A stretch of DNA of 64,000 nucleotides from Centipeda infelix ATCC 43532 (lineage in GTDB: Bacteria > Bacillota > Negativicutes > Selenomonadales > Selenomonadaceae). The stretch covers positions 91,424-155,423 of the forward strand of contig NZ_JH376798.1 of the NCBI RefSeq assembly GCF_000234095.1. The letters run 5' to 3'. This document shows, piece by piece, positions 42,628-64,000 of this stretch (position 1 is the stretch's first letter; every line of letters begins with the position of its first letter). Both the position numbers and the translations under genes were made by a program. The notes under the pieces are model-generated. The model was not told the DNA's origin and did no database searches. It saw nothing but the letters and a program-made list of their open reading frames with translations.

Positions 42628-42689
42628 AAGAATAGGAATCAAAGGGGTTCTTCCCCTCTCATGTTTTCATACAGCAGGAGGTATGTCCA

Positions 42690-43577: not shown

Positions 43578-43621
43578 TGACAGCCTGACAGAGCCGTCCT
43601 TTCCCCTATATTCTCACGAAC

Positions 43622-43655
43622 AATCCCCCGCCAAATGTGACGGGGGATTTGTTTG
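43622..43655 (+). terminator. Terminator of fba
   Basis: AATCCCCCG pairs with CGGGGGATT, followed by TGTTTG. It marks the right border of G+C-rich core genes; A+T-rich sequence starts here. Confidence 0.75.
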
Positions 43656-43759
43656 TATGAAGTTGGATTATGATTAAAGTCAATAAAGCAACAAAATACA
43701 AACATTACGATACATCCTCATCCTTATTGAAGGATTATTACTTATATTATTCATTTTTC

Positions 43760-46603
43760 TTACGTCGTATGAATATATTTTTTTCTCCGCATTTCAAACG
43801 CATCCATCCCACCTTCCAAAATATCACAAATTTGCTGCTGAATACCCTTCTGATTAAGCACACCTGGAAGGATTTCGTCATTATCCCCACACAATGGTAA
43901 TACATTTTCAATAGCCCCACAGCGGTATTCAAATTGCCTGGAGTTGTTTTTTGCTTCTTTGCCATCCTGATTCGCAATAATGACAGCTTCCGCATCTGCT
44001 CCGATAACAACATTGGCATTATGAGTGACCACAATAATCTGTCGCTCATGTTTCTTATTTCTAAGATACTGAACAAGCTCCGTGTAAATCGATCGATTAT
44101 CCAGGTCATCCTCCGGTTGATCAATAAGAATCGGACACTTCCCCTGCTCCAAATTAACAAGCATCTCCAGCAATACCAACGCCTTTTTCCCCGGGGACAT
44201 TTGATTGATGGTATCCCCTCCGCTTTTTAGGATATAGTGAATATAAAACCAATCTGTAAACATTCGTTCCAATGCGATCTGTTCACTGTTTCCACCTTTC
44301 AAGGACAACCTTTCATCACGAATCCATTCCCAAATGGAATCAAGAAGTTTTTCATCAATGGATTTTATGCTGTCCTTATCAGCAATATTACATCCAATCC
44401 TATCAATAGACGATTTTATTTTTCTATTGTCAAAAAGGCTGGATGACAGATCCGCAAAATCAGCAACTCGCTCACCAATTTCAGCATCAAATTTCAAATC
44501 CTTGTTTTGTGAATCTGTACTTGAAATTTTTTCTTGGAAGGTTTGATATTCAGTTTTTATGCTCTTCCACACATCAATGATTTTACTCTTCAGCTCCTGA
44601 GCTTTAGCTATATTTTCCGCCTTATCCCTTTCCAGTTCTTTCGCCTTCTTCTGCTTTTCTTTCTCCTTTCGCAGCTGATCCTCAAGTTTCTTTAGTCGAT
44701 CATTTTGTAACACACGTTGTTTTAACGGCTTCAGTTCTTTATTGATATTTAAAAGATCTTCAGAAAAATTTTTCTTGTTTTGTGCAAGAACAGTTTGCAT
44801 GGATTGAACATCCTGCTTCCAAATCCTAATAAGCTCCATATTGATACGGTGAATCGTTTGCTTCATCAGCTCTTTTATTATGGACATTTCTTCCAGATCG
44901 TAATGCGGCATCCCATTTGCACCAATCTTCGTAATAGAGGGAATGAATACAAACGGTTCTGCCACATCATGGACTGCAGCATATTCTTTTTTTATCGAAT
45001 GAATGTCATATATTCGATCCACCTGTCTCTTCGCCAATTCCGTATAGTTTTGAAACATCTCCTCCGTAAGACCTGTTTCTGCCGAAAGCAGCTCAAGCTG
45101 TCTCTCCAAGTCCAGAACCATAGGACTATATGCAGCACTTCTCCCATGTTCATCCAGAATGCGTTCACATTTTTCCGCACGATCGACACACTCCACATAA
45201 TCAAGAATATGATGTTTCACTAATTGAATCTTATTTGAGACTTCATTTTTTAGATACTCTTCTGCCTTTTTCAGGTCATCATTTTGCAACAAAACATCGC
45301 GTAAAACATCGTTCAGTTGCGACTCATTTGTTCCTTCGTCCGCAATTCGATTCAACCATGATTGAGGAATATAAATTATTTTTCGTTTTCCTGAAGCACC
45401 ATCTTTCCATACAACCTCAGCTGATTCATCTAATTTTTCCTGTTTCTGGGATACTTTTTCCTCCCTTTCTTGGACTTGGTCAGGATCAATCGTCTTAGCA
45501 AGATGTCGTAAGAGCATCGATTTTCCTGTAGATTTTCCACCAATAATAGCTGTAAGTCCTTCGCTGAAATAAATCGGGTCTTGCATAAAATATGTTGACT
45601 GAAATTGGATGTAATCTATCACTTGGTGTGCATCTTTTTCATCAGGTTTTTCCTCTTGAATCCGCACACGCTCCTCCGGCTCATAGAGAATTTGCTGCAG
45701 TCCTTCAAAGGTTGGTTCAGCCTTAATCCAACAAAATTTGTCCTCGTCAGGAGCAAACATTCTTTCATAGGAATGTGCATCAGAGCCCCATATACAGGGT
45801 TTGATTGAACGAAACTCATCTATTTGCTCTTCCTCATGTCCTTTTGCCAATGCCCATTCCCTCGTTCGAGAATTCGATGTCATGAGCAAATCACTCTGCG
45901 CATATATTGCTTGCCTTGTATCGTGATCCCGCCCTCTCCATTGAATGTTAGACAGATCTTCATCCACAGGAACAGAAATAAAATATTGTCCCTTGAAGAT
46001 GATGTTACTCATCAAAACCTCTTGGATTTTTTCGTAATTGACTGTTATTTTTTCAAGCCCTATTAAATAATCGTTACCTGTAGCATTATTATGTTCCTTA
46101 TATCTGCGTCCCACATCTTCTATATTCATCCTGTTTAACGATAGTTTAGAACAATCCGGACGTAATATTTCGATTTTTCCCAAAAACTCACTCTCTATCC
46201 TTTCAACAGGAAATTTATCTGAGAAAAAGACATGATAGTTCACCGAATGAGCTTTTTCTCCAACAAAAGTATTAAGGCGAAACTCAATATTGGGAAAAAC
46301 AAAAATTTCTTCTACGCTCTTTCGCAATTTATCATCCGGAAACAACATACGCATCTTATCCGGCTTTGAGAGATATTCCTCCCTGATTTTCTTATAGCCA
46401 TCAATTGAAAAATAATCGCTCACACCGATCGCAACAATACCACACTGCACAGCTTTTTCAAAAAGCGTTTTTACAAAATTATCAAAGTGTTCTCCTCTAT
46501 GATCCTCCTCTATATTAAATCCAAACTCATTATTCAGTATAGAATACGGCGTATGGACATGAAAATCCCATCTATTCCATGTAGATCCTCTTTCAATGCA
46601 CAT
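43760..46603 (-). CDS. PHP-domain/SMC-like ATPase (TrlF-like), BREX-linked
   Basis: A 947-aa protein; the ATG at 46603 follows GAAGGAGG. Residues 1-300 form a PHP phosphoesterase domain with the metal motifs DFHVHTPYS (His15, His17), GVSDYFSIDGY and IWGSDAHSYER. Residues about 330-947 form an SMC/RecN-type ATPase: Walker A GGKSTGKS at about 355, a long coiled coil (residues about 450-750), and near the C-terminus ILIDQPEDDLDNRSIYTELVQYLRNKKHERQIIVVTHNANV (Walker B and H-loop). The order matches what I recall as the TrlF family found in defence loci. It is visibly richer in A+T than the genes on both sides, so it was probably added to the island separately. It is the last gene of the leftward row. 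Confidence 0.85.
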   Translation of the reverse strand: MCIERGSTWNRWDFHVHTPYSILNNEFGFNIEEDHRGEHFDNFVKTLFEKAVQCGIVAIGVSDYFSIDGYKKIREEYLSKPDKMRMLFPDDKLRKSVEEIFVFPNIEFRLNTFVGEKAHSVNYHVFFSDKFPVERIESEFLGKIEILRPDCSKLSLNRMNIEDVGRRYKEHNNATGNDYLIGLEKITVNYEKIQEVLMSNIIFKGQYFISVPVDEDLSNIQWRGRDHDTRQAIYAQSDLLMTSNSRTREWALAKGHEEEQIDEFRSIKPCIWGSDAHSYERMFAPDEDKFCWIKAEPTFEGLQQILYEPEERVRIQEEKPDEKDAHQVIDYIQFQSTYFMQDPIYFSEGLTAIIGGKSTGKSMLLRHLAKTIDPDQVQEREEKVSQKQEKLDESAEVVWKDGASGKRKIIYIPQSWLNRIADEGTNESQLNDVLRDVLLQNDDLKKAEEYLKNEVSNKIQLVKHHILDYVECVDRAEKCERILDEHGRSAAYSPMVLDLERQLELLSAETGLTEEMFQNYTELAKRQVDRIYDIHSIKKEYAAVHDVAEPFVFIPSITKIGANGMPHYDLEEMSIIKELMKQTIHRINMELIRIWKQDVQSMQTVLAQNKKNFSEDLLNINKELKPLKQRVLQNDRLKKLEDQLRKEKEKQKKAKELERDKAENIAKAQELKSKIIDVWKSIKTEYQTFQEKISSTDSQNKDLKFDAEIGERVADFADLSSSLFDNRKIKSSIDRIGCNIADKDSIKSIDEKLLDSIWEWIRDERLSLKGGNSEQIALERMFTDWFYIHYILKSGGDTINQMSPGKKALVLLEMLVNLEQGKCPILIDQPEDDLDNRSIYTELVQYLRNKKHERQIIVVTHNANVVIGADAEAVIIANQDGKEAKNNSRQFEYRCGAIENVLPLCGDNDEILPGVLNQKGIQQQICDILEGGMDAFEMRRKKYIHTT

Positions 46604-46643
46604 AATACATCCTCCTTCATTTACCGAAAAACATTTTTTCTTC

Positions 46644-47789
46644 TCAAATTCCCCGAATCTTTCCAACAGCCCCCACAATCGCTCGCACCACATCATCAGC
46701 ATCCTGTCCCGTGGTCTCCCGTCCATAGGAGATGCGCAGTGCTTCCATTGCCTCCTTCTCACTGTACCCCATTGCAAGAAGTACATGAGACGGCACATCC
46801 GCCCCTGCGTTGCAGGCAGATGCCGCCGAAACACAAATGCCCTTGAGATCGAGCAAATGCACAAGGGACTCTCCTCGCACACCGGGAACGCCAATGTTCA
46901 CCAGCCCCGGCAGGTGCCCACCGCCTTCTCCATGCACACGTATCTCGGGCAGATTCTCCCGAATCTCCTGCACCGTACATGATACAAGCCCATGTAGACG
47001 CACGGCCTCATCCGCCATACATTCACAGCTCTCCGTCAGAGCCTCGCCCAACGCGACAATCCCCGCCGTGTTCTCCGTCCCCGCACGCAGTCCGTGCTCC
47101 TGCCCGCCACCCGCAATCAGCGCGGGCAGCTCTGCGCCTGGCTTTTGATAGAGGAATCCCGCCCCCTTCATCCCGTAGAATTTATGCCCCGATGCTGTGA
47201 GATACGTTACGCCGAGTTCCCGAACATCAACGGGAATATGCCCGACCGCCTGTACCGCATCGGTGTGAAAGGGGATGCCGCGCCCCGCCAACGCTTCGGC
47301 AATCTCAGCAATGGGCTGCACCGTCCCCACCTCGTTATTGGCAAGCATAACAGACACTAGACGAGTATCCGTGCGTAGTGCACCGATAACAGACGCAGAC
47401 GAAACGCGCCCCGCTCGCGAAACAGGCAGATATGAGATCGCTGCACCGCACTGCTCCAAAGCCCTACACGCCATGAGAATCGAAGGATGCTCGATCGCAC
47501 TCACAACGATATGCACAGACTTGCTGCCCTGTTGCCGCGCCGCCTCCACCACACCGCGCAGAACCGTATTGTTCCCCTCTGAGCCCCCCGCCGTAAACAC
47601 GATCTCCGCCGCGTGCGCTCCAACAGCGCACGCCACTTGTTCACGCGCCCACTCGACAGCTTTTCGCGCCTGCTTGCCAAACGAATAGGCACTCGATGCA
47701 TTCCCGTAGTTCTCCCGAAAAAAAGGCAAAGCGGCAGCAAGCGCTCTCTCTGAGAGCGCGGTCGTCGCCGCGTGATCCGCATATATCAT
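46644..47789 (-). CDS. Cysteine desulfurase of the BREX island
   Basis: A 381-aa PLP enzyme of the NifS/IscS family: YADHAATTALSERALAAALPFF, NASSAYSFGKQAR, FTAGGSEGNNTVLRG, SAIEHPS, the PLP Lys203 in SGHKFYGMKGAGFLY, RAGTENTAGIVALG, and the sulfur-carrying Cys326 in SAASACNAGADVPSHVLLAMG. In Dnd and Ssp systems such an enzyme (DndA/SspA) supplies sulfur for DNA phosphorothioation. Its place behind brxL and the zinc-ribbon gene suggests the same job for BrxP here. The ATG at 47789 is chosen for homology; GTG 47801 is an alternative. Confidence 0.92.
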   Translation of the reverse strand: MIYADHAATTALSERALAAALPFFRENYGNASSAYSFGKQARKAVEWAREQVACAVGAHAAEIVFTAGGSEGNNTVLRGVVEAARQQGSKSVHIVVSAIEHPSILMACRALEQCGAAISYLPVSRAGRVSSASVIGALRTDTRLVSVMLANNEVGTVQPIAEIAEALAGRGIPFHTDAVQAVGHIPVDVRELGVTYLTASGHKFYGMKGAGFLYQKPGAELPALIAGGGQEHGLRAGTENTAGIVALGEALTESCECMADEAVRLHGLVSCTVQEIRENLPEIRVHGEGGGHLPGLVNIGVPGVRGESLVHLLDLKGICVSAASACNAGADVPSHVLLAMGYSEKEAMEALRISYGRETTGQDADDVVRAIVGAVGKIRGI

Positions 47790-47852
47790 CCGTTTATTCA
47801 CCAACTTCACAAAACAGAAAAGACGCTTCCCCACAGGCAAGCGCCTCACCGA

Positions 47853-48050
47853 CTAAAAGAGCGTACAGCCCTCATCCCTGAACTCTTCGACCTTCTCCCG
47901 AAGGAACTCCTCCTCCACCTCAAGGTATTCCGCAAGACATGAAAAGCAAAAAAATTCCTTTGCTTTCATATCCAGAAGCTTCTTCGTAAGACCGACCTCA
48001 TCCTTTGACAAAGGATGTCCACATTCCCGACAAAACTTCTCCTGCGCCAT
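47853..48050 (-). CDS. 65-aa zinc-ribbon protein of the BREX island
   Basis: A small protein with FCRECG (first CxxC) and FFCFSCLAEYL (second CxxC), then an acidic helical tail (EVEEEFLREKVEEFRDEGCTLF) with a last Cys three residues from the end. Four Cys would bind zinc; the terminal Cys is free. It lies between brxL (3-nt gap) and the cysteine desulfurase. A sulfur relay or adaptor between desulfurase and BrxP is a reasonable guess; the family is not known to me by name. Confidence 0.75.
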   Translation of the reverse strand: MAQEKFCRECGHPLSKDEVGLTKKLLDMKAKEFFCFSCLAEYLEVEEEFLREKVEEFRDEGCTLF

Positions 48051-48053
48051 CTT

Positions 48054-49502
48054 CTATATCTCCCGCAGCCGCAGCTTCGGTACATCCTTGCCCCTGTACT
48101 CGATATCCAGAACACCCAGCTGTATCTTGATCGTATCGCGCATCTTGTGTGCCCGCCGCAAACAGTAGCGATCAAACTCGCGCACATTGACATCTGCCGC
48201 CGTACGGATATGAGGGAAGAGCAGCTTCATATATGCCGTTGCAATGCGCTTGATCGCCTCCGTATCACGCGTATCAGCTTCCTCCGGCACCTCCACGATC
48301 TCATCCACGATGGCGCGATAAGACAAATCATCACGCAGCTGATGAAGAATCGTCGAGAAATACTCCGAGTTCATCGCCCAGCCGGAGACCTTCAGATCCT
48401 CCGTCATACGCGGGATATTCCACCCCTTGATAAATCCGTGAAAGCGCTCGATCAGAGCCGACTCATGGAACACCTTCGGCAGTTCCTCAAACATATTGCC
48501 ATAGCCATCCTGATCCATGACCTCTTTCTTGATATTTCCGCAGAGAATCACACCGGCATCCCCGTCCACGCGATGCGTTCCGATATTGCAGTATCCATTC
48601 TCACAGAAGGACTTGAGTGCGCCGCGCATCTCATCCACATCGGGGAACGTGATCGTCTGCACCTCATCCAGCGTCACAAAATCATGATTCGTCACAAGCC
48701 CGTCCTGTCGCCGTGCCACATCATAGAACATCTTTGCACGACTCATCACGCCACCGCTCGCCAACCAGCCGAAGCGGCTTACGCGCCCAAACAGATAGGA
48801 TTTCCCCGTTCCCTTCGGTGCGAGTTCGATGAGGTTCAACTTCTTTTCGGCAAAGGGGAGGAGCCGTGTCAGCATCGTCAGCTTCTCTTCCTCACTCGCA
48901 TACCCTGCGGGGTTGTAGTCCACCGCCCCCAGCAACACATCCATCCATTCTTCGGTTGTGAAGTCCCGTCGTGCATCCTTATAGTAGTCCAAATCAATCG
49001 TATAGGGGCAGAAGCTCTTAAATGCGACGAGTTTGATTTTCCCTTTGTCCTGTACCGACTTTCCAACCGGCGGGCGGTAGCCCAGCTCCACCATCCCCCA
49101 CGTCTCACGCGCCGCAACGAGTTCATCCTTGCAGTCCTGCCAGACATGATCCTCGATCATGGTCTCCTTACTCATCAGTCCAAAGTCCGGCAAAGAAAAG
49201 GACACCGCGCCTGTCTTAATATCAATATCAATCGAAATACGTGCAAGCAGCTTTACCTGCTCCCGCTCGATCACAATGCGGCTCTTGATTGCCGTCCATT
49301 CCTCCTTCCGCGGCAAAAAGCGATGCACGAAGCTCGCAAGTTCCTCTGCATCGAATACACCATCCGCATTTGCAAACCGCTTCAAAAGCCAATCACGAAG
49401 GAAAGAAGGAAGTCCGAGTGCCGAAAGAAAACTGCTCTTCTTCAAATCCTTGTAAACAATCATCTCATCAAAGGCATTTTTGAGCTTATCGATCATCAAC
49501 AT
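48054..49502 (-). CDS. brxL: BrxL, AAA+ protein of BREX
   Basis: A 482-aa BrxL: DEMIVYKDLKKSSFLSALGLPSFLRDWLL, ETWGMVELGYRPP, Walker A ELAPKGTGKSYLFGRVS (about 225-240), Walker B FVTLDEVQTITFPDVDEMRGALKSFCENG, and the sensor region GVILCGNIKKE, PKVFHESALIERFHGFIKGWNIPRM. BrxL forms DNA-bound rings in type 1 BREX. As I recall, those are near 680 aa and carry a C-terminal Lon-like domain; this one stops early at LRLREI and seems to lack it. The start could also be ATG 49496, which has better spacing to GGGGAGG. Confidence 0.9.
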   Translation of the reverse strand: MLMIDKLKNAFDEMIVYKDLKKSSFLSALGLPSFLRDWLLKRFANADGVFDAEELASFVHRFLPRKEEWTAIKSRIVIEREQVKLLARISIDIDIKTGAVSFSLPDFGLMSKETMIEDHVWQDCKDELVAARETWGMVELGYRPPVGKSVQDKGKIKLVAFKSFCPYTIDLDYYKDARRDFTTEEWMDVLLGAVDYNPAGYASEEEKLTMLTRLLPFAEKKLNLIELAPKGTGKSYLFGRVSRFGWLASGGVMSRAKMFYDVARRQDGLVTNHDFVTLDEVQTITFPDVDEMRGALKSFCENGYCNIGTHRVDGDAGVILCGNIKKEVMDQDGYGNMFEELPKVFHESALIERFHGFIKGWNIPRMTEDLKVSGWAMNSEYFSTILHQLRDDLSYRAIVDEIVEVPEEADTRDTEAIKRIATAYMKLLFPHIRTAADVNVREFDRYCLRRAHKMRDTIKIQLGVLDIEYRGKDVPKLRLREI

Positions 49503-49519
49503 AACCTCCCCTCTTCACA

Positions 49520-51829
49520 TCAGAAGTCAAAACCATCGTTCATCTTCATCCCTTTGCTCTGCGCCTCTACCACAAGCACATTCAGGGGAGTATCCCCCTC
49601 ATACACCGCAAGGCTGTATTTGCCGGCGTGCGTAAGCTCGGGAATCTGCACCACGAAATGCTGGGCATCCTGCATTTGCCCTGCATAAAATTTACCCTCC
49701 CAAACGATCCCCAATGCGTTGATCGGCGCATCGGCAAAAAGAGCGAGACAAAGCCCGGTCTTACGATCTACAAACACATTTTTATCCGCAAGGCTCACAT
49801 GAACCGTCTGCCCATCGGCACGCTCCAATGTGATGAGCGGCACAAGCACCTCTTCCAACGATGCGCCGCCGTGTACCTCCACACTCGCCTTACGGCTCCC
49901 CTTGAACCTGCCGTAGTCGGCAAGCACGAGGTAGTCGCCCTCAACCGTTGCAAAAGGCAAATCATGTGCATAGTTCGAAAACATACGGCAGCACCGTCCC
50001 GAATGCTCCCCCTTCGTATCTGTCTCGTACTTCTCCTCCTTCTCCCTGCGCACCGCCAGACGAGAGGCTCCGTGATCGCTCACAATGACAAACCTGCGAC
50101 ACTTCCCCGCCGCAAGCTGCGTCGCAGCATCACGCAGCAATTCTTCAATCACATCAATTTCTTTCGCAAGGTGGATGGGATGCTTCTCCAGCGTATAATT
50201 ATAACGGCTCTCTTCTCCATGTTTCAGATCATCCAGTCGCTTGCTTGCCGCTTTGCTGCCCTGCCATTGCGCGTAAAACGCCCGATTCACCGAGGTAATC
50301 GTCGGGAGCATCGCACGCCCCACCTGCACCCGTATCTTCAATCCGAGCTGTTTGCTAAACGACCCAATCAGGGCAAGATACTCCACGCCGAGCGCATCCA
50401 GCCAAAAGAGATGCGTTCCCTCCTGCGGAACACCATCCAACAGCGACTCACGCGCAGGAAGCTCATTATAAATCCGCGCCGCAGCAAGCGCATCCACTTT
50501 AGATAGGAACACCTCTTCCAGGCAGTTGCTGAGCTTCTGCCGCTTGTAGGCAATGAAATACTCCGTCAGTTCCGCTGCCCGTGCACAATCCTTGAACACG
50601 TAGTCGGAGGCATAGGCATAGAGCGAAGGATAGACCGTTTGCAAAATTCCACAATTTTTCCAGTCATCATAGCCATCATCTGCATCATGCGAAAGTGCCG
50701 CGATCATATCCTCGCGCTCCACCTCCGTCCGATCCGTCAAACGGTAGATGCGCTCTGCATGAATCCTGCGGTTTTTCCGCACAAACTCCGCCATTTCTGC
50801 CTCGGAGCAGTTGCGCAGGAGACGTTTCCGCTCCTGATACAGCTTCTGAAACTCCGGATTTTGAAGCGAAATATTTGAGATGGCATGAATAACCGCCGTA
50901 CGAAGTCCTGCGGCACTTTCCGCCTGCTGTACGGCAAAGAAAAGATAGGGATACTTCTTCGCAAGGTCGTCCCCTGCCAGCCGCAGGGCAATAAAATACA
51001 ACCATGTATCAAAGTCAGAGGCATTGGTTCGCTCATGAAAAAGCTGTGCCAAATCTCCGTGCAGTCCGTAGTGCGCGAACACGGCAGACATCTTCCACTG
51101 TTCCTTGGAGAGCTCCTGCAAGAGCCGCTGCCATTCTGCCTCCGTCCCGCAGGAGCGCAGGGGAGCAAATTCCTCACAAAAATGCGAAATCACCCCAAAC
51201 GCATCCCTCACATGATGAACACGAAGGAGGGCATGGGGAAAACTCTGCCGACTTTGTACGATATGAGTGCCGTCGCGTCCCTGCTCCAATGCCGCCAGCA
51301 AAGATCGTGCACCATGTATTCCCACCTCCATAGGAATCTCCGGCGGCAATACGCTCAGAGAGACATCCATCCCCAGCACAGAGTCCTCCGCCGCATCTTC
51401 GGCACTGCGCCGCAGTGCCAAGCGACGCTCACCGTTTGCGATACGGGGATCCTCGGACAGCTCCGACGCATAACGGAAAAATCCGCGCAGCAACAATAGA
51501 GCAGCACCATCCCCACAGGGCATCGACTTGAGACGGGAAAAGAGACGGCGCGCTGCCGCCTCCCCACACAGGGCGAGATATTCCGCCAAGCCGATGAGGA
51601 GGATCTTCTCACCACTCTGCACCTTCGTTTTGATGGTCATAACAATGTCATCGGGAAGCGGCAGCCGATCCTCCTCAGAGGAAAGCGAACTCAGCGTAAG
51701 CAAATGAAGCCCCAGACCTTGCAGCCTGTGGCGCAGCTGCGCATAGACCGAGCCCCCCGCAAAGAGGAAGAACGGCGTTCGCTCCCTGTCCTGCAAATAT
51801 CGCTCGACAGCTGTCAAATCCGGCACCAT
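49520..51829 (-). CDS. pglZ: PglZ, alkaline-phosphatase-fold BREX protein
   Basis: A 769-aa protein. The C-terminal half is the PglZ domain: HLFWLDALGVEYLALIGSF (about 475), FVIVSDHGASRLAVRREKE (about 575) and EVHGGASLEEVLVPLITLER. These give the metal-site Asp and His of the alkaline phosphatase superfamily. The N-terminal half is helical and family-specific. PglZ is the hallmark of every BREX type; its substrate is unknown. It lies between brxC (16-nt gap) and brxL (17-nt gap). Confidence 0.93.
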   Translation of the reverse strand: MVPDLTAVERYLQDRERTPFFLFAGGSVYAQLRHRLQGLGLHLLTLSSLSSEEDRLPLPDDIVMTIKTKVQSGEKILLIGLAEYLALCGEAAARRLFSRLKSMPCGDGAALLLLRGFFRYASELSEDPRIANGERRLALRRSAEDAAEDSVLGMDVSLSVLPPEIPMEVGIHGARSLLAALEQGRDGTHIVQSRQSFPHALLRVHHVRDAFGVISHFCEEFAPLRSCGTEAEWQRLLQELSKEQWKMSAVFAHYGLHGDLAQLFHERTNASDFDTWLYFIALRLAGDDLAKKYPYLFFAVQQAESAAGLRTAVIHAISNISLQNPEFQKLYQERKRLLRNCSEAEMAEFVRKNRRIHAERIYRLTDRTEVEREDMIAALSHDADDGYDDWKNCGILQTVYPSLYAYASDYVFKDCARAAELTEYFIAYKRQKLSNCLEEVFLSKVDALAAARIYNELPARESLLDGVPQEGTHLFWLDALGVEYLALIGSFSKQLGLKIRVQVGRAMLPTITSVNRAFYAQWQGSKAASKRLDDLKHGEESRYNYTLEKHPIHLAKEIDVIEELLRDAATQLAAGKCRRFVIVSDHGASRLAVRREKEEKYETDTKGEHSGRCCRMFSNYAHDLPFATVEGDYLVLADYGRFKGSRKASVEVHGGASLEEVLVPLITLERADGQTVHVSLADKNVFVDRKTGLCLALFADAPINALGIVWEGKFYAGQMQDAQHFVVQIPELTHAGKYSLAVYEGDTPLNVLVVEAQSKGMKMNDGFDF

Positions 51830-51845
51830 CGCATTTCACTCCCGT

Positions 51846-54800
51846 TTACGAGTTTTCCAGAATCTCCATCCCGACCGTCATATTATCTGCCACAAGGCGC
51901 TTCAAATATGCCTTGAGCGTTGCATCGTCCATACTGTCGATCTTCAAGAGCACCTTGGAGGAGCCGCCTGCATCGTAGCTCGCCTTTGCAAGCTGCTTCA
52001 GTTTTTCCTCAACGCGCAGGTGACCTCTCCAGTCGTACGGAGAGATACCGAGTGCCGTCAGTTTTTCACGTACTACCGGCAAATCAGTCAAGAGTCCCGC
52101 ATACTTCCCGATGACATTTTTGCGGAACGCTGCATCTCTCTGTGCCCCATCCGAAAGCACCGTGATAAAAGCCGCATTCTCCAAAAAGGCAATCGCCGCC
52201 TTCAGTTCCTCGTCCTTACCGTCACGATGATCAATATAGGAGAATACACGCTGCGCCGCATCGTATTCATCCGCCCCCACACAGGCAAGTACAGGTGTTT
52301 GGTACTGCTCCGACCATTTGCGCGGACTGAGCGAGCCCGTTTTCTCCTTCCAGAGATCGCGCAGCTGTTCCTTGAGCTGACTGCGCCGATACTCCTCCGC
52401 ACAGGAACGTACCGCCTCATTGCAGTGGGTTTTCGTTTTGAGGAAAAGCCCCTGCTCCACCTTGCTCCGTATTGTTTTCCGCTCTGCCTCAGAAAGCCCA
52501 TCCAGATAGGGAGCATACACCTTGGCAAAGAACACATCCTCCTCACCGAGCACCTGCTCCATCTCGGCACCATACTGTTCCATCAACGAAACAAAGTCAC
52601 GCACATGCTCGGGCAGGACATCACCGCCCTTCGCCAGCAGTTGGAGGATATGCCTCGTCTTCGCAAACGCTTCGGACTGCTCCGCCAAAAATTCTGCCGA
52701 GATACGCAGGAAGCTCAGGCGTTCCTTCCACGCCGCACGCGCCACAGTCCACTCTTGAAGCTGTGCATTGAGCACCCGATTCGTCGCGCGAATCGCGCGA
52801 TACTCCATGCAAAGCTCCCGCAGGAGCTCCTCCCCCGTCTCCTTGCTCCAGAGGCAGGCATACTTCTGTGAAAACTTGTGTCGTATATCTTGGAGCAGCT
52901 GCCCGCGCCGCCCGACTTCATCCGCAAGATGCAGGAGTTCACCATCGGCAAAGGATTTCAGGAAGAGATTCATCCCCTCCTCCAGCCGCTCCACACAGAG
53001 CAGCTCCTTTAGTTCATCCGCCAACGAGGGCTGTTCTTGCGGAGAGCTTCCAAGAGCCATCATGATGCCGTGTGCCTCGCGCCCCTCCTTCTGCTGCAGA
53101 AGGGAATACAACTCAACAACAGCGAACAGATTCTCCTCTGCCACATACGCGAGACACCAAAGCGGCAGCTGCCATTCCTTCATGCGATTTTGGATGCCAA
53201 TGGAGACCCGCGCCACAGACGTACAGCTTGCCTCCGATAGGCCCCACGCCTTTTGCGTTATCTCATAAAAGGCGCGCTCCTCTGCCGTCATCTCCACGAT
53301 AAAGGTATCCTGCGGTGTCTTTCCCTTTGCCAGATCGCCAATACAGTCCCCCAGCATCTCTTTTAGCTTCTCGGCAGTCATCGCCCCCGAGCTTCCCGCC
53401 GCATCGCCGTAGCGATAGGGATCGCCTGCGTATGGACGCAGTAGGAAACCGAGCAGGAACGCCGTGAGATTGCACGGAGGCATCCCATACTCCGACAGGA
53501 GCACATCGCATAGCTCGGCAACGCCGATCTGCCCCGCCTGAGAGAAGTGGGCAGCGATGCGAGCTTCCAGATCCCTCTTGATCACAGAGATGGGAAGACT
53601 CTTCGTCTCCGCTCTCTGCCAATAGTCGGGGAGCGTCCACACCTCGGACAAGACACGATTGTCCGCATCCTTGATTGTACCTGACACTACGCCATTGATG
53701 CCGGCGAGCGCCGATGGCTTTAGCGCATTTGTCTTATAATACCCTTCCGTGGTTGTCTTCTCAACATCAAAGGCGTTCGGAAATTGACGCAGCACAATCG
53801 CTTTAAGAACGCCGGACACATCACTTGCCTGCGTCAGAGAGATTCCGTCCGGCTGCTGCGTCGTATAGACGATAAAGCGACCGCTGTAGATACGGTTCTT
53901 CCAGCTCTGCTCCAGTACAGCGTTCGCATGTCTTGCCTGCTGATCGGCCGCCGTCCGATTATTCCCCTGATAGTATTCCGCCATTGCGGAGTATTCCACA
54001 TATTTCTCGAAATCGTCCGCTCCAAGCGGCGTGCTCAGTGCATCGATAAAAGTGATATGCCCATACTTCGAATCACACGCTGCGTCCTTGATCTTGGAGC
54101 GGAAAGCAGCCGCCTCCATATCGTCCTTGGCGAAGGCAAGGACGGCTTGAAAACGCCACGCCTCCACTGGCTTCTCCATCCCATTGATAATACGGGTAAA
54201 GTTATCCGCCGTCACCGTCTGAATGCTGCCGAGACTGCTCAGGAAGCGTGGCTTCACCCCCTCGGGGTGGAGTGTCAGGATCTTGCCAAGATTCCCCGTC
54301 TCCACCAGCTTATCCGTCTTCGTCTTGCGCAGCCCCTCCTTGTACTGCTCGATCTTCCCCTGATCGCCGCTGAGCAGTGCCAACTCATACGTCGGTTCTC
54401 CCTTTTGACGCGGCGTTTGGATCAAAATCCCCTGCGTCTTGAGAGACTGTGCGATCGCGGCAACACGAGAGCCCAGATCATCATCCCCCTCAAACACATA
54501 GGAGAGATTCTGATCCGTCGCGTGCAGAAGTTCGATGCTGCCGCCCAGCTGCTTATCCACCGCGAGCAGGATCAAAATCGCCTTGAGTACCGTCTGCTGT
54601 TCCTCACGCAAACCCTTCTGCTGCTCATAGGTGTCCAGAATCATGCGGATATGGGTTGCAAGATCTGCCTTTCCACGCACATAGAAGAAATCCCAGAGCT
54701 GATCCACCGTCAGCAGAGGATGCTCGTCATACGGACCCGTATGATCGATGAAATATTGGAATGCCTTGACCTGCTCATCCCCAACCGACTTGATAAAATC

Positions 54801-55991
54801 AAACATACTACGCTGGTTCGACTGGAACGAGGATGCAATATGTTTGAGAACCAGAGCCGTCATCGGATGCAGAGGCATGATATTTCGGATCACATCCTCA
54901 GACGTGATGCCCGCGACATCCATCACGCGACGACGGGACTCATGAAGACGACCATTGAGATCGCCCTCCACCTCCGCCCAATCCTGCGCCGCGGCAGCTT
55001 TCGGTTTGAATGCCGCACCGATGAGATCAAACGCGATATTGTCCGGCAACGTAATCCCGACATCGATGAAACGGTCGCGAACCTTCTTCCACGTCTCATC
55101 CACCTGCGTAAAAAGATGATCCGTCTCATGGGTCACAGGAACGAAGAAAAAATGCTTTGCATTCACGAGCTCCGCCAGTTTTTGAAAATCTGCCAGACTC
55201 TCACGATTCATGCGGAAATAATCCGAGAACTCATCCCAGATAAAGACGAGTTTGATATTGTTCTGCTCAATGACATCCGTCAGCCACGCAATCAGACGAT
55301 CAATATCGAGCTGCATCATGGTAAAGCCCTCGGCGTTAGAGAGTCGCGTAATACGCTCCATGAGGTCACGCACCTCACCGCCCTCGCGCAGACGTGTGAC
55401 AATATCCTCGACCATCATCCCGCCGAACGATGCCGTCCATTGCGGCTGCTGCAGCACGCTGTCAACGAAGATCTTGCGCGCCTCAGTCGCCTCCAGCCAT
55501 GCGATGACACTCTCCTTGAGCGTATGTTCTCCCTCGTAAAGGCCACGCGCATGAAGTTCTGCCTGCACACTCTCCTGCACGGCAATGAGCAGATCTTGCG
55601 TCGAGTGCGGAGTTCCCGCGTAGCGGTACACCGTCACAATGCCATTGCCTACCTGCTTGTGTCCAAGCAGCTTGCCCAGTAAATCAGTCTCATGTGCGAG
55701 TGCCTTATAGTCTTCCCAGTAGGCGCGCAGTTCCGACTCGGGTACATCGAGAATCTTCTTGAGCGTATAGGCGCACTGTGACTTGCCCGTGCCGTATGCG
55801 CCCGAGATCCACACCGAGCGTTTCTCCTGCCGCGCCATCACACGCTCCATCTTTTTCAGCAGTTCCAGAAACTTCTCATGCGGATAGGTTTTCAGCCACA
55901 GGTTCTTCGAGTCCCGAATCGAGGAGTCCGTTATCTGAGGAAAATAGTTCTCGTCAAAGTCAAAATATGTGCGATACATTCCCTGTGCCAT
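51846..55991 (-). CDS. brxC: BrxC, large BREX ATPase
   Basis: A 1381-aa ATPase of the BrxC/PglY family: Walker A SGAYGTGKSQCAYTLKKIL (about 63-80), Walker B IKLVFIWDEFSDYFRMN (about 255-270), then VTHETDHLFTQVDETWKKVRDRF. The long C-terminal part is mostly helical. The ATG at 55991 follows GAGGAGG, inside the end of brxP and 4 nt after its stop. Like PglZ it is a core component of all BREX types. The size is as expected. Confidence 0.92.
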   Translation of the reverse strand: MAQGMYRTYFDFDENYFPQITDSSIRDSKNLWLKTYPHEKFLELLKKMERVMARQEKRSVWISGAYGTGKSQCAYTLKKILDVPESELRAYWEDYKALAHETDLLGKLLGHKQVGNGIVTVYRYAGTPHSTQDLLIAVQESVQAELHARGLYEGEHTLKESVIAWLEATEARKIFVDSVLQQPQWTASFGGMMVEDIVTRLREGGEVRDLMERITRLSNAEGFTMMQLDIDRLIAWLTDVIEQNNIKLVFIWDEFSDYFRMNRESLADFQKLAELVNAKHFFFVPVTHETDHLFTQVDETWKKVRDRFIDVGITLPDNIAFDLIGAAFKPKAAAAQDWAEVEGDLNGRLHESRRRVMDVAGITSEDVIRNIMPLHPMTALVLKHIASSFQSNQRSMFDFIKSVGDEQVKAFQYFIDHTGPYDEHPLLTVDQLWDFFYVRGKADLATHIRMILDTYEQQKGLREEQQTVLKAILILLAVDKQLGGSIELLHATDQNLSYVFEGDDDLGSRVAAIAQSLKTQGILIQTPRQKGEPTYELALLSGDQGKIEQYKEGLRKTKTDKLVETGNLGKILTLHPEGVKPRFLSSLGSIQTVTADNFTRIINGMEKPVEAWRFQAVLAFAKDDMEAAAFRSKIKDAACDSKYGHITFIDALSTPLGADDFEKYVEYSAMAEYYQGNNRTAADQQARHANAVLEQSWKNRIYSGRFIVYTTQQPDGISLTQASDVSGVLKAIVLRQFPNAFDVEKTTTEGYYKTNALKPSALAGINGVVSGTIKDADNRVLSEVWTLPDYWQRAETKSLPISVIKRDLEARIAAHFSQAGQIGVAELCDVLLSEYGMPPCNLTAFLLGFLLRPYAGDPYRYGDAAGSSGAMTAEKLKEMLGDCIGDLAKGKTPQDTFIVEMTAEERAFYEITQKAWGLSEASCTSVARVSIGIQNRMKEWQLPLWCLAYVAEENLFAVVELYSLLQQKEGREAHGIMMALGSSPQEQPSLADELKELLCVERLEEGMNLFLKSFADGELLHLADEVGRRGQLLQDIRHKFSQKYACLWSKETGEELLRELCMEYRAIRATNRVLNAQLQEWTVARAAWKERLSFLRISAEFLAEQSEAFAKTRHILQLLAKGGDVLPEHVRDFVSLMEQYGAEMEQVLGEEDVFFAKVYAPYLDGLSEAERKTIRSKVEQGLFLKTKTHCNEAVRSCAEEYRRSQLKEQLRDLWKEKTGSLSPRKWSEQYQTPVLACVGADEYDAAQRVFSYIDHRDGKDEELKAAIAFLENAAFITVLSDGAQRDAAFRKNVIGKYAGLLTDLPVVREKLTALGISPYDWRGHLRVEEKLKQLAKASYDAGGSSKVLLKIDSMDDATLKAYLKRLVADNMTVGMEILENS

Positions 55992-55995
55992 TTCC

Positions 55996-58221
55996 TCAGA
56001 CCTCCTCGGTGCGGAAGAGTTCCAATACATCTGTGGAACTCTTATCCTCTGCCAGCGTGATCTTCTCCAAATCATGCGTAAAGGACACATCAATGAAATC
56101 CGGATACTTCGCCGAAAGCCCCCTCAGCATCGGCTCCGCCTCCTCGCGCGTCACACCGAAGATCCGCGTCGGACTAATACCGTCACGCTCAATTGTGTCA
56201 TTGAGCAGCGTCGAGAGCGTGAACGCTTTATAGTCACCGCATTTCTCCGCGAACTTAAACAGCCCGTAGAGAAACACACGCGCATCCGAAAGCACACATT
56301 TCGTTCGGCAGAGACTCCCATCCTCCGACACATAGCCAAAGTTTAGAACAGTGCCGAGGGGCGTGGAGACAATTCTGCGATAAGCAGTAGCCACGAGCTC
56401 GGAAGGACGTTCCTTCAGCCCCTCAATTTGCAGCATATCTATCAAATTTTTTCTCGAATAGCTCGCGCCAATCTCCATTTTTTGGATATACCAAGCAAGC
56501 TGTGGATTCTCTGCCGCTAAATTTGTTAGTATTAGTCCCCACGCAATTTCTGTGCTCCATCCAATATCACAAATCAGTTCGCCGAATGCCGTAAGATGTA
56601 CTTTATCAATCAATCCGGCATCATGTAGAAAGAGCTTGAATTTTAATAACTGAGGTGCTGCCAAGGCGTTTTCATTGAAAAAATCATCCTTTCCTTGGAA
56701 AAATGCCTCCAACCACTCCGTCTTAGGACTATGTGCCCCTAATGAGTTAATTGATCTCACGTTTCCGCCTCCAGTCGGTATCTTCAACGAATCATATATT
56801 AAGCAGCCGCCCGGTATATCATGACACGCCATACAATGCTTGCAGTCTGCTATCTTGACCTTGCCTGTTGCAAACGATATACATCCATGTCTGCAGTGCC
56901 CGGCACAAACCGTACAAGACGAACAATATGCAGCTTTGCGAAAGACTTGCCGAAAAATCTTCGCTTTTGACGGGTTGCTCTTTAGTATCTGCTCTGCTAC
57001 AGAAATCGTATAACTATTCTTCCCCTCTTCAACAGAATACGGAATATCCCAATCCAGCGTTTGCATCCACTCTTTCCAGTCAGACAAAGCACCTGTAATT
57101 TTTATATGGGTAACGCCCGCCTTTGTTTCCTCTATGTATCTTTTCTTGACCCCCTCGATAAAGCGCCCATCTGTCCGATGCTTCCAATCTCCTCGATTGA
57201 TAAAATCTCGAAACCCCTCTTGAGAAAATGTCGTTTCTCTCGTTTTCTCAATAATATCAAAATATGGAGCAATTTCTTGCCGATATACCCTATGACGAAT
57301 AAACTCACTTGAGCCACTAGATAGAGGACACTCCAAACACCCTGCTCTGGAATTTCCTTTTTTATATGCCTCATTAACAGAAATATCATACGTGTAAATA
57401 TAGAGGAAAAGCTCTGCTGAAGTCCATTCTAGTAATGGAAAAAAACCATACTGACCTCGTGTTTTATCCCCATCAATGAAGTATTGATATCCAGCCCGCC
57501 GAACACTTTCATGTGCACGCACGCCAACAAAAGCCAAACCTCGATAGTCGTTCTTACCGGTAATTTCTCTTAATTTCAACACTTGTGGTGTGCTCTTATG
57601 AACCGAGCAGCACCAGCGAAGTGTACGCGATGGGGGACCAAAGAGATTCCATGACTCGGCGGGTGTAAAATGCGAGGCAGCCCGATAGAACGGTATCTCC
57701 TTGGCTTTGCACTCTGCCTCTATCTGATCGACGAGCGCGTAGGTATCGGGGAACTCCATCCCTGTATCTCCGAATACAACAACAAAGCTGCCCTGCGGCA
57801 GTGCCTTTTTCACGAGATCGAGCAGGACACAGCTGTCCTTCCCTCCCGAGAACGCAACATGAAAACAATCCAGCTTCGCTCGGTACTTTTCATAGACCGC
57901 GACGATCTTCTTCACCGTTGTCTGCTCGATCAACTCCAGCATCTCGCGATTCTTCGCAACCATACGAGGAACATCCACACAGATGAGCTCCGCGCCTTTC
58001 GGAAGAAGCAAGTCGCCGTTCTCATCCGGCATCAGCTCAATCTGCGGTGCGGTATAGACATCGCCGCCCTTGAGCTTTGCAACCATCTGCCCACGGTAGT
58101 AGTAGCAATTCGCCTCTGCCCAGAGATAGGGCAACTCATTCTGATGTGCATACTTCCAATACGCATCAAATCCCAAAACATCCAACTCGGCAGCATATAC
58201 AGGACGAGGCTCCTTGGACAT
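55996..58221 (-). CDS. brxP: BrxP, PAPS-reductase-like sulfurtransferase of type 4 BREX
   Basis: 741 aa from ATG 58221. The PP-loop ATP-pyrophosphatase/PAPS reductase core has FHVAFSGGKDSCVLLDL (SGGKDS 125-130), VVVFGDTGMEFPDTY, RTLRWCCSVHKSTP and RAGCLECPLSSG. A Cys-rich segment at about 435-490 (CSSCTVCAGHCRHGC, CKHCMACHDIPGGC) could bind Fe-S clusters. The C-terminal third resembles DUF4007. It is related to DndC/SspD-type sulfur enzymes. The frame stays open 21 codons upstream with family-like sequence (IYSYTYDDETGGLLLNSSPT) and ends at ATT 58284, 6 nt after GAGGGG, so true initiation may be at that ATT. Confidence 0.9.
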   Translation of the reverse strand: MSKEPRPVYAAELDVLGFDAYWKYAHQNELPYLWAEANCYYYRGQMVAKLKGGDVYTAPQIELMPDENGDLLLPKGAELICVDVPRMVAKNREMLELIEQTTVKKIVAVYEKYRAKLDCFHVAFSGGKDSCVLLDLVKKALPQGSFVVVFGDTGMEFPDTYALVDQIEAECKAKEIPFYRAASHFTPAESWNLFGPPSRTLRWCCSVHKSTPQVLKLREITGKNDYRGLAFVGVRAHESVRRAGYQYFIDGDKTRGQYGFFPLLEWTSAELFLYIYTYDISVNEAYKKGNSRAGCLECPLSSGSSEFIRHRVYRQEIAPYFDIIEKTRETTFSQEGFRDFINRGDWKHRTDGRFIEGVKKRYIEETKAGVTHIKITGALSDWKEWMQTLDWDIPYSVEEGKNSYTISVAEQILKSNPSKAKIFRQVFRKAAYCSSCTVCAGHCRHGCISFATGKVKIADCKHCMACHDIPGGCLIYDSLKIPTGGGNVRSINSLGAHSPKTEWLEAFFQGKDDFFNENALAAPQLLKFKLFLHDAGLIDKVHLTAFGELICDIGWSTEIAWGLILTNLAAENPQLAWYIQKMEIGASYSRKNLIDMLQIEGLKERPSELVATAYRRIVSTPLGTVLNFGYVSEDGSLCRTKCVLSDARVFLYGLFKFAEKCGDYKAFTLSTLLNDTIERDGISPTRIFGVTREEAEPMLRGLSAKYPDFIDVSFTHDLEKITLAEDKSSTDVLELFRTEEV

Positions 58222-58285
58222 CTTCGTCGGTGAGGAGTTTAACAGCAGCCCCCCCGTCTCGTCATCATACGTATAGGAATAAATT

Positions 58286-59713
58286 TCAACCCCTCACCTT
58301 CGCTAGAGCGATCACAGCATTGATCTGGCGTCCCGTGACAGCTCTGACAATATAACCTGAATCACGCAAAAATCTTCCTACAGTTTCTGGATCGAGTTCT
58401 ATATTTGCACGAACAACAACATCAGCCAATAGATCATCATAAGTTCTGAGTGTACGATCCTTGCGAATCACTGCGCCCACGTGATCACTATTATAGCGCA
58501 GAGCCCACACTGAAAAGCATTTACTGAATCTCCTGCAATAACTTTCAAACAAGAACAAGTTCCATTGTTGCCCACACGCTGGAAAGCGTGCAAACATCGC
58601 ATAAAAATCCTTTAGTGGAAGGTATTCCCCATCAATGATGCTGTCAATCACACAATCTGTTGCTGGCACATCAAAATTTACATGAGCATCGGAAACAAAA
58701 TGTTCCTCGTCCAGTCGTATCATACACTCTATTCCTGCCTGCAAAGCAATCGTGGGACTATCAGTGAACGATTTTGCGTACGCCTGTAACTCCTCCATCG
58801 TACAGACATCCAAACCTCTGCAAAACGCACGCATTAGGTCAATTGGCGAGGTTTTCTTCGCCATTTCTCCACTCGATAACGACCTTTTTCTAGTCAGTAT
58901 ATTTCCTTTTCTGCTGTATCCATCCGCCAAACAAAGTTCATATATTGCATCATAAACAGCCGAGTTCGTATCCGTCTCAAGTTCATAATTCTCAGCAAGA
59001 ACATCATCGACCGGGAGTTCCTTAATGTTATAGGATACATACTGTTCCGAAAGCTCTTGAGCCTTTTCGCGCAGCCGAATCTTCACCTCATCACGGATTG
59101 CAACACGCGAAACATGCGTATACGTCTCGTTCGACACCCACAGGAAAGCACCGCGTGCCCCCAATGTTTGCTTGATTTTGTCATAGGGGATATAGAGCCG
59201 ATCCGCCAGTTCCTCATACGTCCACAGTACCTTATCGCCCCAGATCGCTATTATGTCGTCTGTGATTACATCAAAAAGAGTACCATCCCGCTTCCCAAAG
59301 TACATTTTTTCGTAGTGCAGGTCGGGGAATAATTGCCGCAAGACAGCAATCAAGATGGATTCGCTAAATATATGCGCATCGCTCAACTCCTTTTGATGGC
59401 GTGTGAAAAACGCCTCATAGAAGATGACCTGCGACTTTCCGAGATAAGTCGTAACAATAAACTGCAGCCAGTCCAAGACATCGCGAGGAATCAGAAATGC
59501 CATCTGCCCGTCCTGTATGGTGAACGCAGCAATCTGTGCACGCACAGCATGATCCGATGCCAGCAGCTCCTCACCACCATGATCTTCCCGCCAGCGCTCA
59601 CGCAGCTGCCGCATTGCAATCGGCGAATTGAGCCGATAGCCATTGGGAAAATGACGACGAAGGAGCTGCAGCAGCGCATCTCGCAAGAAATCATTCCCCG
59701 CAAAAATGCCCAT
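58286..59713 (-). CDS. First gene of the BREX operon, unknown family
   Basis: A 475-aa protein; the ATG at 59713 follows GGAAGGTGAG (a GTG 12 nt upstream is less well placed). It is probably a DNA-binding or structural protein with helical, winged-helix-like regions (LRQLRERW-type helices, DKVLWTYEELADRLYIPYDKIKQTLGARGAFLWVSNETYTHVSRVAIRDEVK, a cluster that resembles a winged helix). No catalytic motif, membrane helix or signal peptide. Its stop overlaps the ribosome site of brxP, so it is translated with the system. It is moderately A+T-rich. It may be a regulator or a recognition subunit. Confidence 0.75.
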   Translation of the reverse strand: MGIFAGNDFLRDALLQLLRRHFPNGYRLNSPIAMRQLRERWREDHGGEELLASDHAVRAQIAAFTIQDGQMAFLIPRDVLDWLQFIVTTYLGKSQVIFYEAFFTRHQKELSDAHIFSESILIAVLRQLFPDLHYEKMYFGKRDGTLFDVITDDIIAIWGDKVLWTYEELADRLYIPYDKIKQTLGARGAFLWVSNETYTHVSRVAIRDEVKIRLREKAQELSEQYVSYNIKELPVDDVLAENYELETDTNSAVYDAIYELCLADGYSRKGNILTRKRSLSSGEMAKKTSPIDLMRAFCRGLDVCTMEELQAYAKSFTDSPTIALQAGIECMIRLDEEHFVSDAHVNFDVPATDCVIDSIIDGEYLPLKDFYAMFARFPACGQQWNLFLFESYCRRFSKCFSVWALRYNSDHVGAVIRKDRTLRTYDDLLADVVVRANIELDPETVGRFLRDSGYIVRAVTGRQINAVIALAKVRG

Positions 59714-59747
59714 GCCTTTACTCACCTTCCTAATTTATGCTAAATGT

Positions 59748-59775
59748 ATTTTACCACAATCGGTCATTCTTGCAA
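59748..59775 (-). promoter_or_regulatory. Promoter of the BREX operon
   Basis: On the minus strand TTGCAA (59770-59775), a 16-nt spacer and TAAAAT (59748-59753), 35 nt upstream of the first start codon. No other promoter is evident in the operon. Confidence 0.65.
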
Positions 59776-59993
59776 GCTCATCGACTTTTTGTCTTTTATA
59801 TGATATAATAATAAAAAAGTATTTTTAAGTGTAGCGAATCTTGGGAATTTCAGCTCCATCGCGTCATTTCTAACCACCTTGGTCATTCAGGTTTATCCTG
59901 CTTGTAAAACAAGGCTCAAGAAGATGTTTGTTCTGATCGGAGGATTTCTTATGACGGCTTGTACTTTATTGGCGGGGTATGATAGCGCATTGC

Positions 59994-60091
59994 GGGGTTA
60001 ATGCCAATAATGGGAGCAATAGTCGAGAGAGGCTGCACTTTTCAAAATAGCAAAGCGCTATGGCAAGGTTCAAGTCCTTGTGACCCCGCCA
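59994..60091 (+). ncRNA. tRNA-like RNA with CCA end, no standard anticodon arm
   Basis: The 3' half is canonical. The T stem CAAGG/CCTTG (60064-60068, 60076-60080) has loop TTCAAGT and is followed directly by acceptor strand TGACCCC (60081-60087), discriminator G and encoded CCA. TGACCCC pairs with GGGGTTA at 59994-60000, and the helix can extend by two more pairs. A D-like arm is TGC/GCA (60002-60004, 60016-60018) with GGG in the loop. The next hairpin (60020-60035) has a six-base GAGAGA loop without U33. A further stem is ATAGC/GCTAT (60047-60061). A -10 box TATGAT ends at 59983 and a terminator follows at 60101. It could be a tRNA pseudogene, an unusual long tRNA, or a tRNA mimic. Confidence 0.55.
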
Positions 60092-60100
60092 GATAATCAC

Positions 60101-60125
60101 AACATCCGTCAATCGGATGTTTTAT
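60101..60125 (+). terminator. Terminator of the tRNA-like RNA
   Basis: An 8-bp perfect stem AACATCCG/CGGATGTT with a TCAAT loop, followed by TTATA. It lies 10 nt after the CCA. Confidence 0.75.
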
Positions 60126-60152
60126 ACATGCCCCTCTAGAGGCCCATAACCG

Positions 60153-60191
60153 AAGGCTGTTGCACTCGTATCAACGTGTGACAGCCTTTTT
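60153..60191 (+). terminator. Second hairpin with T tract
   Basis: AAGGCTGTTGCAC pairs with GTGTGACAGCCTT (two mismatches), followed by TTTG. It contains the GGCTGTTGCAC word of the inverted repeat at 40-87. The remaining gap 60192-60328 is A+T-rich and empty. Confidence 0.55.
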
Positions 60192-60328
60192 GACGCACAA
60201 CACCTTTAACCGACTCGGCCATTAGGCTATTTTCTTTCATAGTATTAAGCATATTTTACAACTTGCAGATTATGTCAGTTGTGACCATATCAAATTCATT
60301 CGTATTCCCTCATCTCATTTCTCCCTGC

Positions 60329-60868
60329 CTATGATTGCCGAAATTCCCTCTGTAGATTCTGATAGACCGCATCGTCCTGCGCGCTGAAGCTCACGATGGT
60401 GACGCGCATGTCTGCATCCGGATGCGCGTCAAACCACTCCCGAATCGTCATGAGTGCGATCTCTGCCGCCGCCTCCTTCGGATAGCCGTAGACACCCGTT
60501 GAGATGGCAGGAAACGCGATGGTATGCAGTCCGTGTGTCCGTGCGAGTGCAAGAGAGTTCCAATAGCAGGAGCGCAGGAGCTCCGCATCGGATGTGCTGC
60601 CGCTGTAGACGGGACCAACCGTATGAATCACATAGTGCGCGGGCAGATGATATCCCTTCGTAATCTTTGCCGCGCCCGTTGCGCAGCCGCCGAGCGTACG
60701 GCACTCCGCGAGGAGCTCCCTGCCCGCCGCCCGATGAATCGCTCCGTCAACGCCACCGCCGCCGAGGAGGCTACAATTCGCCGCGTTTACGATGGCATCT
60801 ACGGCGAGCGTTGTGATGTCACCCACGAAATAAACAATCTCATTCTTCGATGCATTCGGCTTCAACAT
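60329..60868 (-). CDS. Macrodomain (O-acetyl-ADP-ribose deacetylase-like) protein
   Basis: A 179-aa single macrodomain: [73 protein letters not shown] and [40 protein letters not shown] is the ADP-ribose-binding and catalytic loop of the MacroD/YmdB group, which removes ADP-ribose or acetyl-ADP-ribose. The ATG at 60868 follows AGGAG. It is a single gene between the BREX region and the binding-protein gene, and could be either a core gene or a defence accessory. Confidence 0.93.
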
Positions 60869-60900
60869 CATCACTCCTATTGTTTGACATGGAGTACGTT

Positions 60901-62614: not shown

Positions 62615-62644
62615 CACAAGGGAGATCTTTTATGCTAAAATTAT

Positions 62645-63997: not shown

Positions 63998-64000
63998 TAT

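What the first reader, a model, noticed from the sequence alone, without database searches (positions are those of the whole stretch)
43760..59713. Type 4 BREX island with a built-in sulfur supply
The order unknown gene, brxP, brxC, pglZ, brxL, zinc-ribbon, cysteine desulfurase, PHP-ATPase lies on one strand with tiny gaps. There is no DNA methylase. A DndA/SspA-like desulfurase and a PAPS-reductase-like BrxP in the same operon argue that this BREX marks DNA with sulfur, perhaps phosphorothioate, not methyl groups.
Basis: partly seen in the sequence, partly recalled or inferred. Interest (0 to 1): 0.8.

Follow-up and report, generated by a model that had tools for sequence, protein, structure and literature searches.

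The report
BREX-4 island with own sulfur supply
A bacterial anti-phage gene island that very probably marks the cell's own DNA with sulfur instead of methyl groups and brings its own sulfur-donating enzyme; this idea is already published, but the unnamed first gene turns out to be a constant partner of this kind of system and looks like an expandable DNA-reading protein that I could not find described.

Summary
One strand carries X (479 aa), brxP, brxC, pglZ, brxL, a 65-aa CxxC/CxxC protein, a cysteine desulfurase and a TrlF-family PHP-ATPase, with gaps of 3-64 bp. The island (43654-60288) sits in a variable site: the flanks match sister genomes up to both edges. Type 4 BREX membership is supported by family models. 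The sulfur idea is right but not new. Published work (NAR 2026 gkag035; Microbiome 2025) treats type 4 BREX as a phosphorothioation system, and gkag035 already lists the desulfurase (56% of taxa) and the small zinc finger.

Two corrections. TrlF is neighbouring cargo: a sister species has the same seven-gene operon without it. "DndA/SspA-like" is uninformative, since a housekeeping NifS of the genus scores higher on those models.

The part that may be new is X. It lies directly upstream of brxP in 54 of 54 sampled loci with upstream sequence, has no Pfam, NCBIfam or PADLOC match, and is predicted to be a tandem winged-helix array. Elsewhere it carries 0-6 extra modules at its N-terminus. Its divergence tracks BrxC and PglZ (r=0.93). 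I propose that X is the DNA-reading subunit; this is inferred, not shown.

The parts
43654..60288 (.). inserted island, variable site between fructose-bisphosphate aldolase and macro-domain/ABC substrate-binding genes
   Evidence: flanks 41683-43653 and 60289-63999 align to sister genome G410 with 2.3 kb of other DNA between; four more relatives also stop matching at 43653
58286..59725 (-). X: 479-aa tandem winged-helix protein, core-only form; proposed DNA-reading subunit
   Evidence: no Pfam/NCBIfam/PADLOC match; homologue upstream of brxP in 54/54 loci; AlphaFold2 pLDDT 92.5; Foldseek hits to SelB, UFL1, ESCRT-II winged helices
55996..58221 (-). BrxP: PAPS-reductase-like sulfurtransferase with two 4Fe-4S-type cysteine clusters and C-terminal domain
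   Evidence: PADLOC BrxP 5e-237, PF01507 2e-29; SGGKD at 125-129, Cys 433/436/439/443 and 460/463/466/473
51846..55991 (-). BrxC: P-loop ATPase, SspC-like
   Evidence: PADLOC BrxC E=0, SspC 1.5e-26; GAYGTGKS Walker A
49520..51829 (-). PglZ, BREX-4 type
   Evidence: NF033445 392 bits, cut-off 140
48054..49502 (-). BrxL, short 482-aa form
   Evidence: TIGR02688 412 bits, cut-off 329; PF13337 and PF20442
47853..48050 (-). 65-aa CxxC...CxxC zinc-ribbon-like protein
   Evidence: reading frame; homologue after brxL in 43/44 loci
46644..47789 (-). cysteine desulfurase, NifS/IscS class; sulfur donor
   Evidence: PF00266 3e-68; PLP lysine in SGHK and catalytic Cys in ASACNAG; nearest relatives are BREX desulfurases of other phyla
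43760..46603 (-). TrlF-family PHP-ATPase; adjacent cargo, not part of the conserved operon
   Evidence: NF045780 553 bits; absent from sister genome G400, where the operon ends at the desulfurase and narGH follows; GC about 40% against 46-56% in the operon

Best explanation
The island carries a phosphorothioate-based type 4 BREX system as a self-sufficient seven-gene cassette. The desulfurase takes sulfur from cysteine and hands it to BrxP. BrxP activates the DNA phosphate with ATP and, with BrxC and its own C-terminal domain, puts sulfur into the backbone at recognition sites. PglZ and BrxL act on unmarked phage DNA. X, a tandem winged-helix protein that elsewhere carries a variable string of added modules, most likely positions the BrxC/PglZ machine on DNA or reads the site or the mark. 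Shown here: gene content, order, conservation, co-divergence, predicted fold of X. Shown elsewhere: PT made by type 4 BREX. Inferred: sulfur flow in this strain, the zinc-ribbon as a sulfur relay or regulator, and the role of X.
For: Family models. Intact motifs in BrxP, desulfurase, BrxC and BrxL. No methylase family hit. Conserved order across phyla and in a fecal contig deposited as phage. X adjacent to BrxP in 8 of 8 strong X hits among 399 genomes. X co-diverges with BrxC and PglZ, r=0.93, as tightly as BrxC with PglZ, 0.95; the desulfurase only loosely, 0.21-0.47. X model pLDDT 92.5 with tandem winged-helix matches. PT by type 4 BREX: PMC12839542, PMC11931770.
Against: No measurement of sulfur in this DNA. 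The primary validation paper (Yuan et al.) could not be read here. X is missing from about 7 of 17 genomes with BrxP, those with more divergent BrxP, so it is not needed by every type 4 BREX. In this window X has no added modules, so its own specificity cannot rest on them. Tandem winged helices also bind RNA or proteins (SelB, ESCRT-II), so DNA reading by X is a guess.
Confidence: 0.85

Rival explanations
1. The desulfurase is a housekeeping enzyme captured by the operon: it now serves tRNA thiolation or Fe-S assembly because the ancestral nifS of the genus is gone, and BrxP takes sulfur from elsewhere.
For: It is the only NifS/IscS-type desulfurase in the genome. The genus nifS between the 320-aa gene and rrf2 is precisely absent in this genome and in G400, the other BREX-4 carrier.
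Against: G399 and G406 also lack nifS at that site and have no close copy of this desulfurase. SufD-SufS-SufU is present. The closest relatives of the gene are BREX desulfurases of other phyla, not genus NifS. It follows brxL and the zinc-ribbon in 35 of 41 loci. Both roles at once are possible.
Confidence: 0.1
2. BrxP is a reductase or sensor and the system does not modify DNA; its Fe-S clusters monitor redox or phage metabolism and the desulfurase only builds those clusters.
For: BrxP scores far below the DndC cut-off (20.9 against 290 bits) and carries ferredoxin-like cysteine clusters. The desulfurase diverges only loosely with the rest.
Against: Published PT synthesis by type 4 BREX (PMC12839542, PMC11931770). 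Intact SGGKD loop, hits to SspD and SspC models.
Confidence: 0.05
3. X is a transcription regulator of the operon, not part of the machine.
For: First gene of the operon, winged-helix fold.
Against: Divergence as tightly bound to BrxC and PglZ as these are to each other; a 460-aa conserved core with up to 1,200 aa of added modules is unlike a local repressor.
Confidence: 0.2

Closest known systems
Type 4 BREX (brxP-brxC-pglZ-brxL), PT-based
   Same: All four core proteins, no methylase, desulfurase and small zinc finger as in PMC12839542
   Different: X is not among the components listed in the text of that paper; TrlF sits beside the operon; the BrxP C-terminal domain does not reach the DUF4007 model in this genome although it does in some relatives
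Ssp system (SspABCD with SspE or SspFGH)
   Same: Desulfurase, PAPS-reductase-like protein, SspC-like ATPase
   Different: PglZ and BrxL take the place of SspE/FGH; in the Ssp-like loci examined DUF4007 is a separate gene next to the SspD-like gene
Dnd system
   Same: Desulfurase plus PAPS-reductase-like sulfurtransferase
   Different: BrxP is far below the DndC cut-off; no DndB, DndD or DndE family hit among the eight proteins
TrlF family PHP-ATPase
   Same: NF045780 above cut-off
   Different: none; ordinary member placed next to a BREX operon

Membership tests
BREX type 4 | BREX-4 type PglZ | tested here: met
   NF033445 392 bits, cut-off 140
BREX type 4 | BrxP in place of a methyltransferase | tested here: met
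   PADLOC BrxP 5e-237; no methyltransferase family in the eight proteins
BREX type 4 | BrxC/PglY ATPase | tested here: met
   PADLOC BrxC 1435 bits; the general NCBIfam BrxC model is below its cut-off (24 of 400)
BREX type 4 | BrxL | tested here: met
   TIGR02688 412 bits, cut-off 329
BREX type 4 | DUF4007 (BrxA-like) domain, often fused to BrxP | tested here: inconclusive
   No PF13182 match in this genome at E<=10; matches lie in the BrxP C-terminus in G253 and, weakly, G050
BREX type 4 | phosphorothioate in host DNA | not testable with these tools
   needs LC-MS or PT-seq
BREX type 4 | phage exclusion | not testable with these tools
   needs phage challenge
Dnd system | DndC at curated cut-off | tested here: not met
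   TIGR03183 20.9 bits, cut-off 290.4
DndA/SspA desulfurase | match that separates it from housekeeping NifS | tested here: not met
   TIGR03235 309 bits, cut-off 480; PADLOC SspA/DndA 411 bits but genus NifS 484/482
Ssp system | SspC- and SspD-related proteins | tested here: inconclusive
   BrxC hits SspC 1.5e-26, BrxP hits SspD 2e-12; related, better explained as BREX-4
Ssp system | SspE or SspFGH | tested here: not met
   no such family among the eight proteins
TrlF ATPase | NF045780 cut-off | tested here: met
   553 bits, cut-off 350

The most novel reading that the evidence does not exclude
X is an undescribed component of a large clade of type 4 BREX that sets where the machine acts. Its core of tandem winged helices docks on BrxC/PglZ, and in front of it lineages gain and lose modules of three kinds (integrase-SAM-like, a 115-aa alpha/beta module, and a SANT-like module), which would make it an expandable, rapidly re-arranged DNA-recognition array.
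Probability: 0.35. Interest if true: 0.75.

Novelty: new member of a known kind. Interest (0 to 1): 0.45.

Why it matters
The island is a clean, compact, self-supplied example of a sulfur-marking BREX system. How type 4 BREX picks its DNA sites without a methylase recognition domain is, as far as I could find, not explained. X gives a concrete, testable candidate: it is constant in position within its clade, tied to BrxC/PglZ in divergence, and variable in exactly the part that could read DNA. The core-only X of this window and the long forms elsewhere make a natural comparison set.

Tried and rejected
Pfam on 15 long X homologues found nothing usable except a Phage_int_SAM_1 match in one. X as DUF4007: rejected, since DUF4007 falls in the BrxP C-terminus of relatives, not in X. 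X as a truncated gene with modules lost to a frameshift upstream: no module found in any frame of 59600-61500. PHP-ATPase as part of the operon: rejected by G400. Desulfurase as the genome's only sulfur donor: rejected by the SUF locus. Foldseek of the N-terminal modules gave no match at E<=0.001; the viral library for the X core gave none either; a PDB sequence profile of X gave none. Promoter/terminator scan was not far above shuffles and was not used. The Yuan et al. paper is not held, and figures and supplements of PMC12839542 could not be read, so novelty of X rests on text search only.

Full report
Observation. With corrected starts the gaps are 64 bp (X to brxP), 4 bp (brxP to brxC), 16 bp, 17 bp, 3 bp (brxL to zinc-ribbon), 63 bp and 40 bp. 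BREX-4 PglZ, BrxL and TrlF exceed their curated NCBIfam cut-offs. BrxP and BrxC match PADLOC models over nearly full length. No methyltransferase family was hit.

Island limits. In five relatives the left flank matches up to exactly 43653. In G410 the right flank resumes at 60289 with 2.3 kb of other DNA between. Other relatives hold 3.4 to 13.7 kb of different DNA at this site, in one case with an IteA-like anti-phage ATPase. So 43654-60288 is an insertion in a variable site.

Operon limits. In sister genome G400 the same operon (desulfurase about 92% identical; X 480 aa, core only) ends at the desulfurase and is followed by narGH. The TrlF-like gene is missing there, and its stretch is lower in GC than the operon. 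I treat it as cargo.

Conservation. A scan of genome contigs with BrxP gave 59 loci from many phyla. Counting only loci with enough sequence: X upstream of brxP 54/54, zinc-ribbon after brxL 43/44, desulfurase 35/41. The scan favours relatives of this BrxP, so these rates describe its clade. In an even sample of 399 genomes of the phylum, the 8 strong X matches are all beside BrxP. Of about 17 genomes with BrxP, 8 have X, 2 have a shorter X-like gene, and 7 have none. Weak partial X-like stretches occur in ORFs of 500-1300 aa elsewhere. A contig deposited as a fecal phage, unverified, carries the whole seven-gene operon.

Sulfur supply. The genome has a SufD-SufS-SufU locus. The BREX desulfurase is its only NifS/IscS-type enzyme. 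In most of the genus a nifS gene lies between a 320-aa gene and rrf2, in the nrdR-miaA neighbourhood; it is precisely absent from this genome, G400, G399 and G406. G399 keeps only SufS, so SufS alone can serve. In a tree the BREX desulfurase groups with BREX desulfurases from Chloroflexota, Spirochaetota and another Bacillota (97/96 support), away from the genus NifS group (99/98); the SufS outgroup is on a very long branch, so the root is unsure. The desulfurase was therefore most likely inherited with BREX, not recruited from the local nifS. Its divergence tracks the rest only loosely (r 0.21-0.47), as expected for a donor that can be exchanged. PADLOC SspA/DndA scores do not separate it from housekeeping NifS.

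X. The core of about 460 aa aligns over 55 homologues (A1). AlphaFold2 gave mean pLDDT 92.5. Foldseek matches are to tandem winged-helix proteins: UFL1 (E 9e-5), SelB (E 1e-3 to 4e-3), ESCRT-II; TM-scores are low, so this supports the type of fold, not kinship. Homologues carry N-terminal additions of 0-1200 aa built from three recurring modules: SAM-like (74 copies in 38 proteins), module B (29 in 22), SANT-like (30 in 30). The module names other than the Pfam-supported SAM match are my own labels. One SAM-like copy passes the Pfam integrase SAM cut-off. A model of one N-terminus shows separate folded modules joined by disordered linkers, mean pLDDT 77; Foldseek found no significant match. 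X here is core-only, and no module remnant lies upstream. Over 34 complete loci X distances correlate with BrxC and PglZ at r=0.93, next to 0.95 for BrxC-PglZ. Shared ancestry inflates all these values; the ranking is the informative part.

Mechanism. Established elsewhere: type 4 BREX makes phosphorothioate (PMC12839542 and PMC11931770, both citing Yuan et al. 10.1101/2024.06.03.597175, which I could not read); PglZ of type 1 BREX is reported as a metal-dependent nuclease (title of PMC12205998). Inferred here: desulfurase to BrxP sulfur transfer, BrxC scaffold, PglZ/BrxL restriction, X as DNA reader. The zinc-ribbon could be a sulfur relay or a regulator; nothing here decides it.

Novelty. 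The sulfur interpretation and the desulfurase/zinc-finger association are published. The island is a new member of a known kind. X as a constant, modular partner was not found in the text of the papers I could search, but figures and supplements were out of reach.

Noticed in passing
G000:C3 36000-55999 (L154), also L155, L156, L157: The genus nifS gene is precisely missing between a 320-aa gene and rrf2 in four species, including both BREX-4 carriers; whether BREX-borne desulfurases ease nifS loss is open.
   Followed up: partly
43654-60288 and L168-L172: The site between fructose-bisphosphate aldolase and the substrate-binding protein gene is an insertion hotspot with different cargo in each relative; G403 has an IteA-like ATPase and a TonB siderophore receptor there.
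   Followed up: partly
L173 (MT835511.1) 13079-27543: A fecal contig deposited as a bacteriophage (unverified) holds the complete seven-gene type 4 BREX operon with a modular X; either a phage or mobile element carries it or the record is bacterial.
   Followed up: partly
L176 8642-12067, L178 6487-9999: Proteins of 1142-1171 aa with weak X-core-like stretches and no BrxP nearby; a possible wider family of tandem winged-helix proteins followed by two genes of about 700 aa.
   Followed up: no
43760-46603: TrlF-family PHP-ATPase of lower GC beside the BREX operon; probably an independent defence gene.
   Followed up: partly
L067 4092-9902: Two X-type genes in tandem upstream of brxP, one 1370 aa and one 566 aa.
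   Followed up: no
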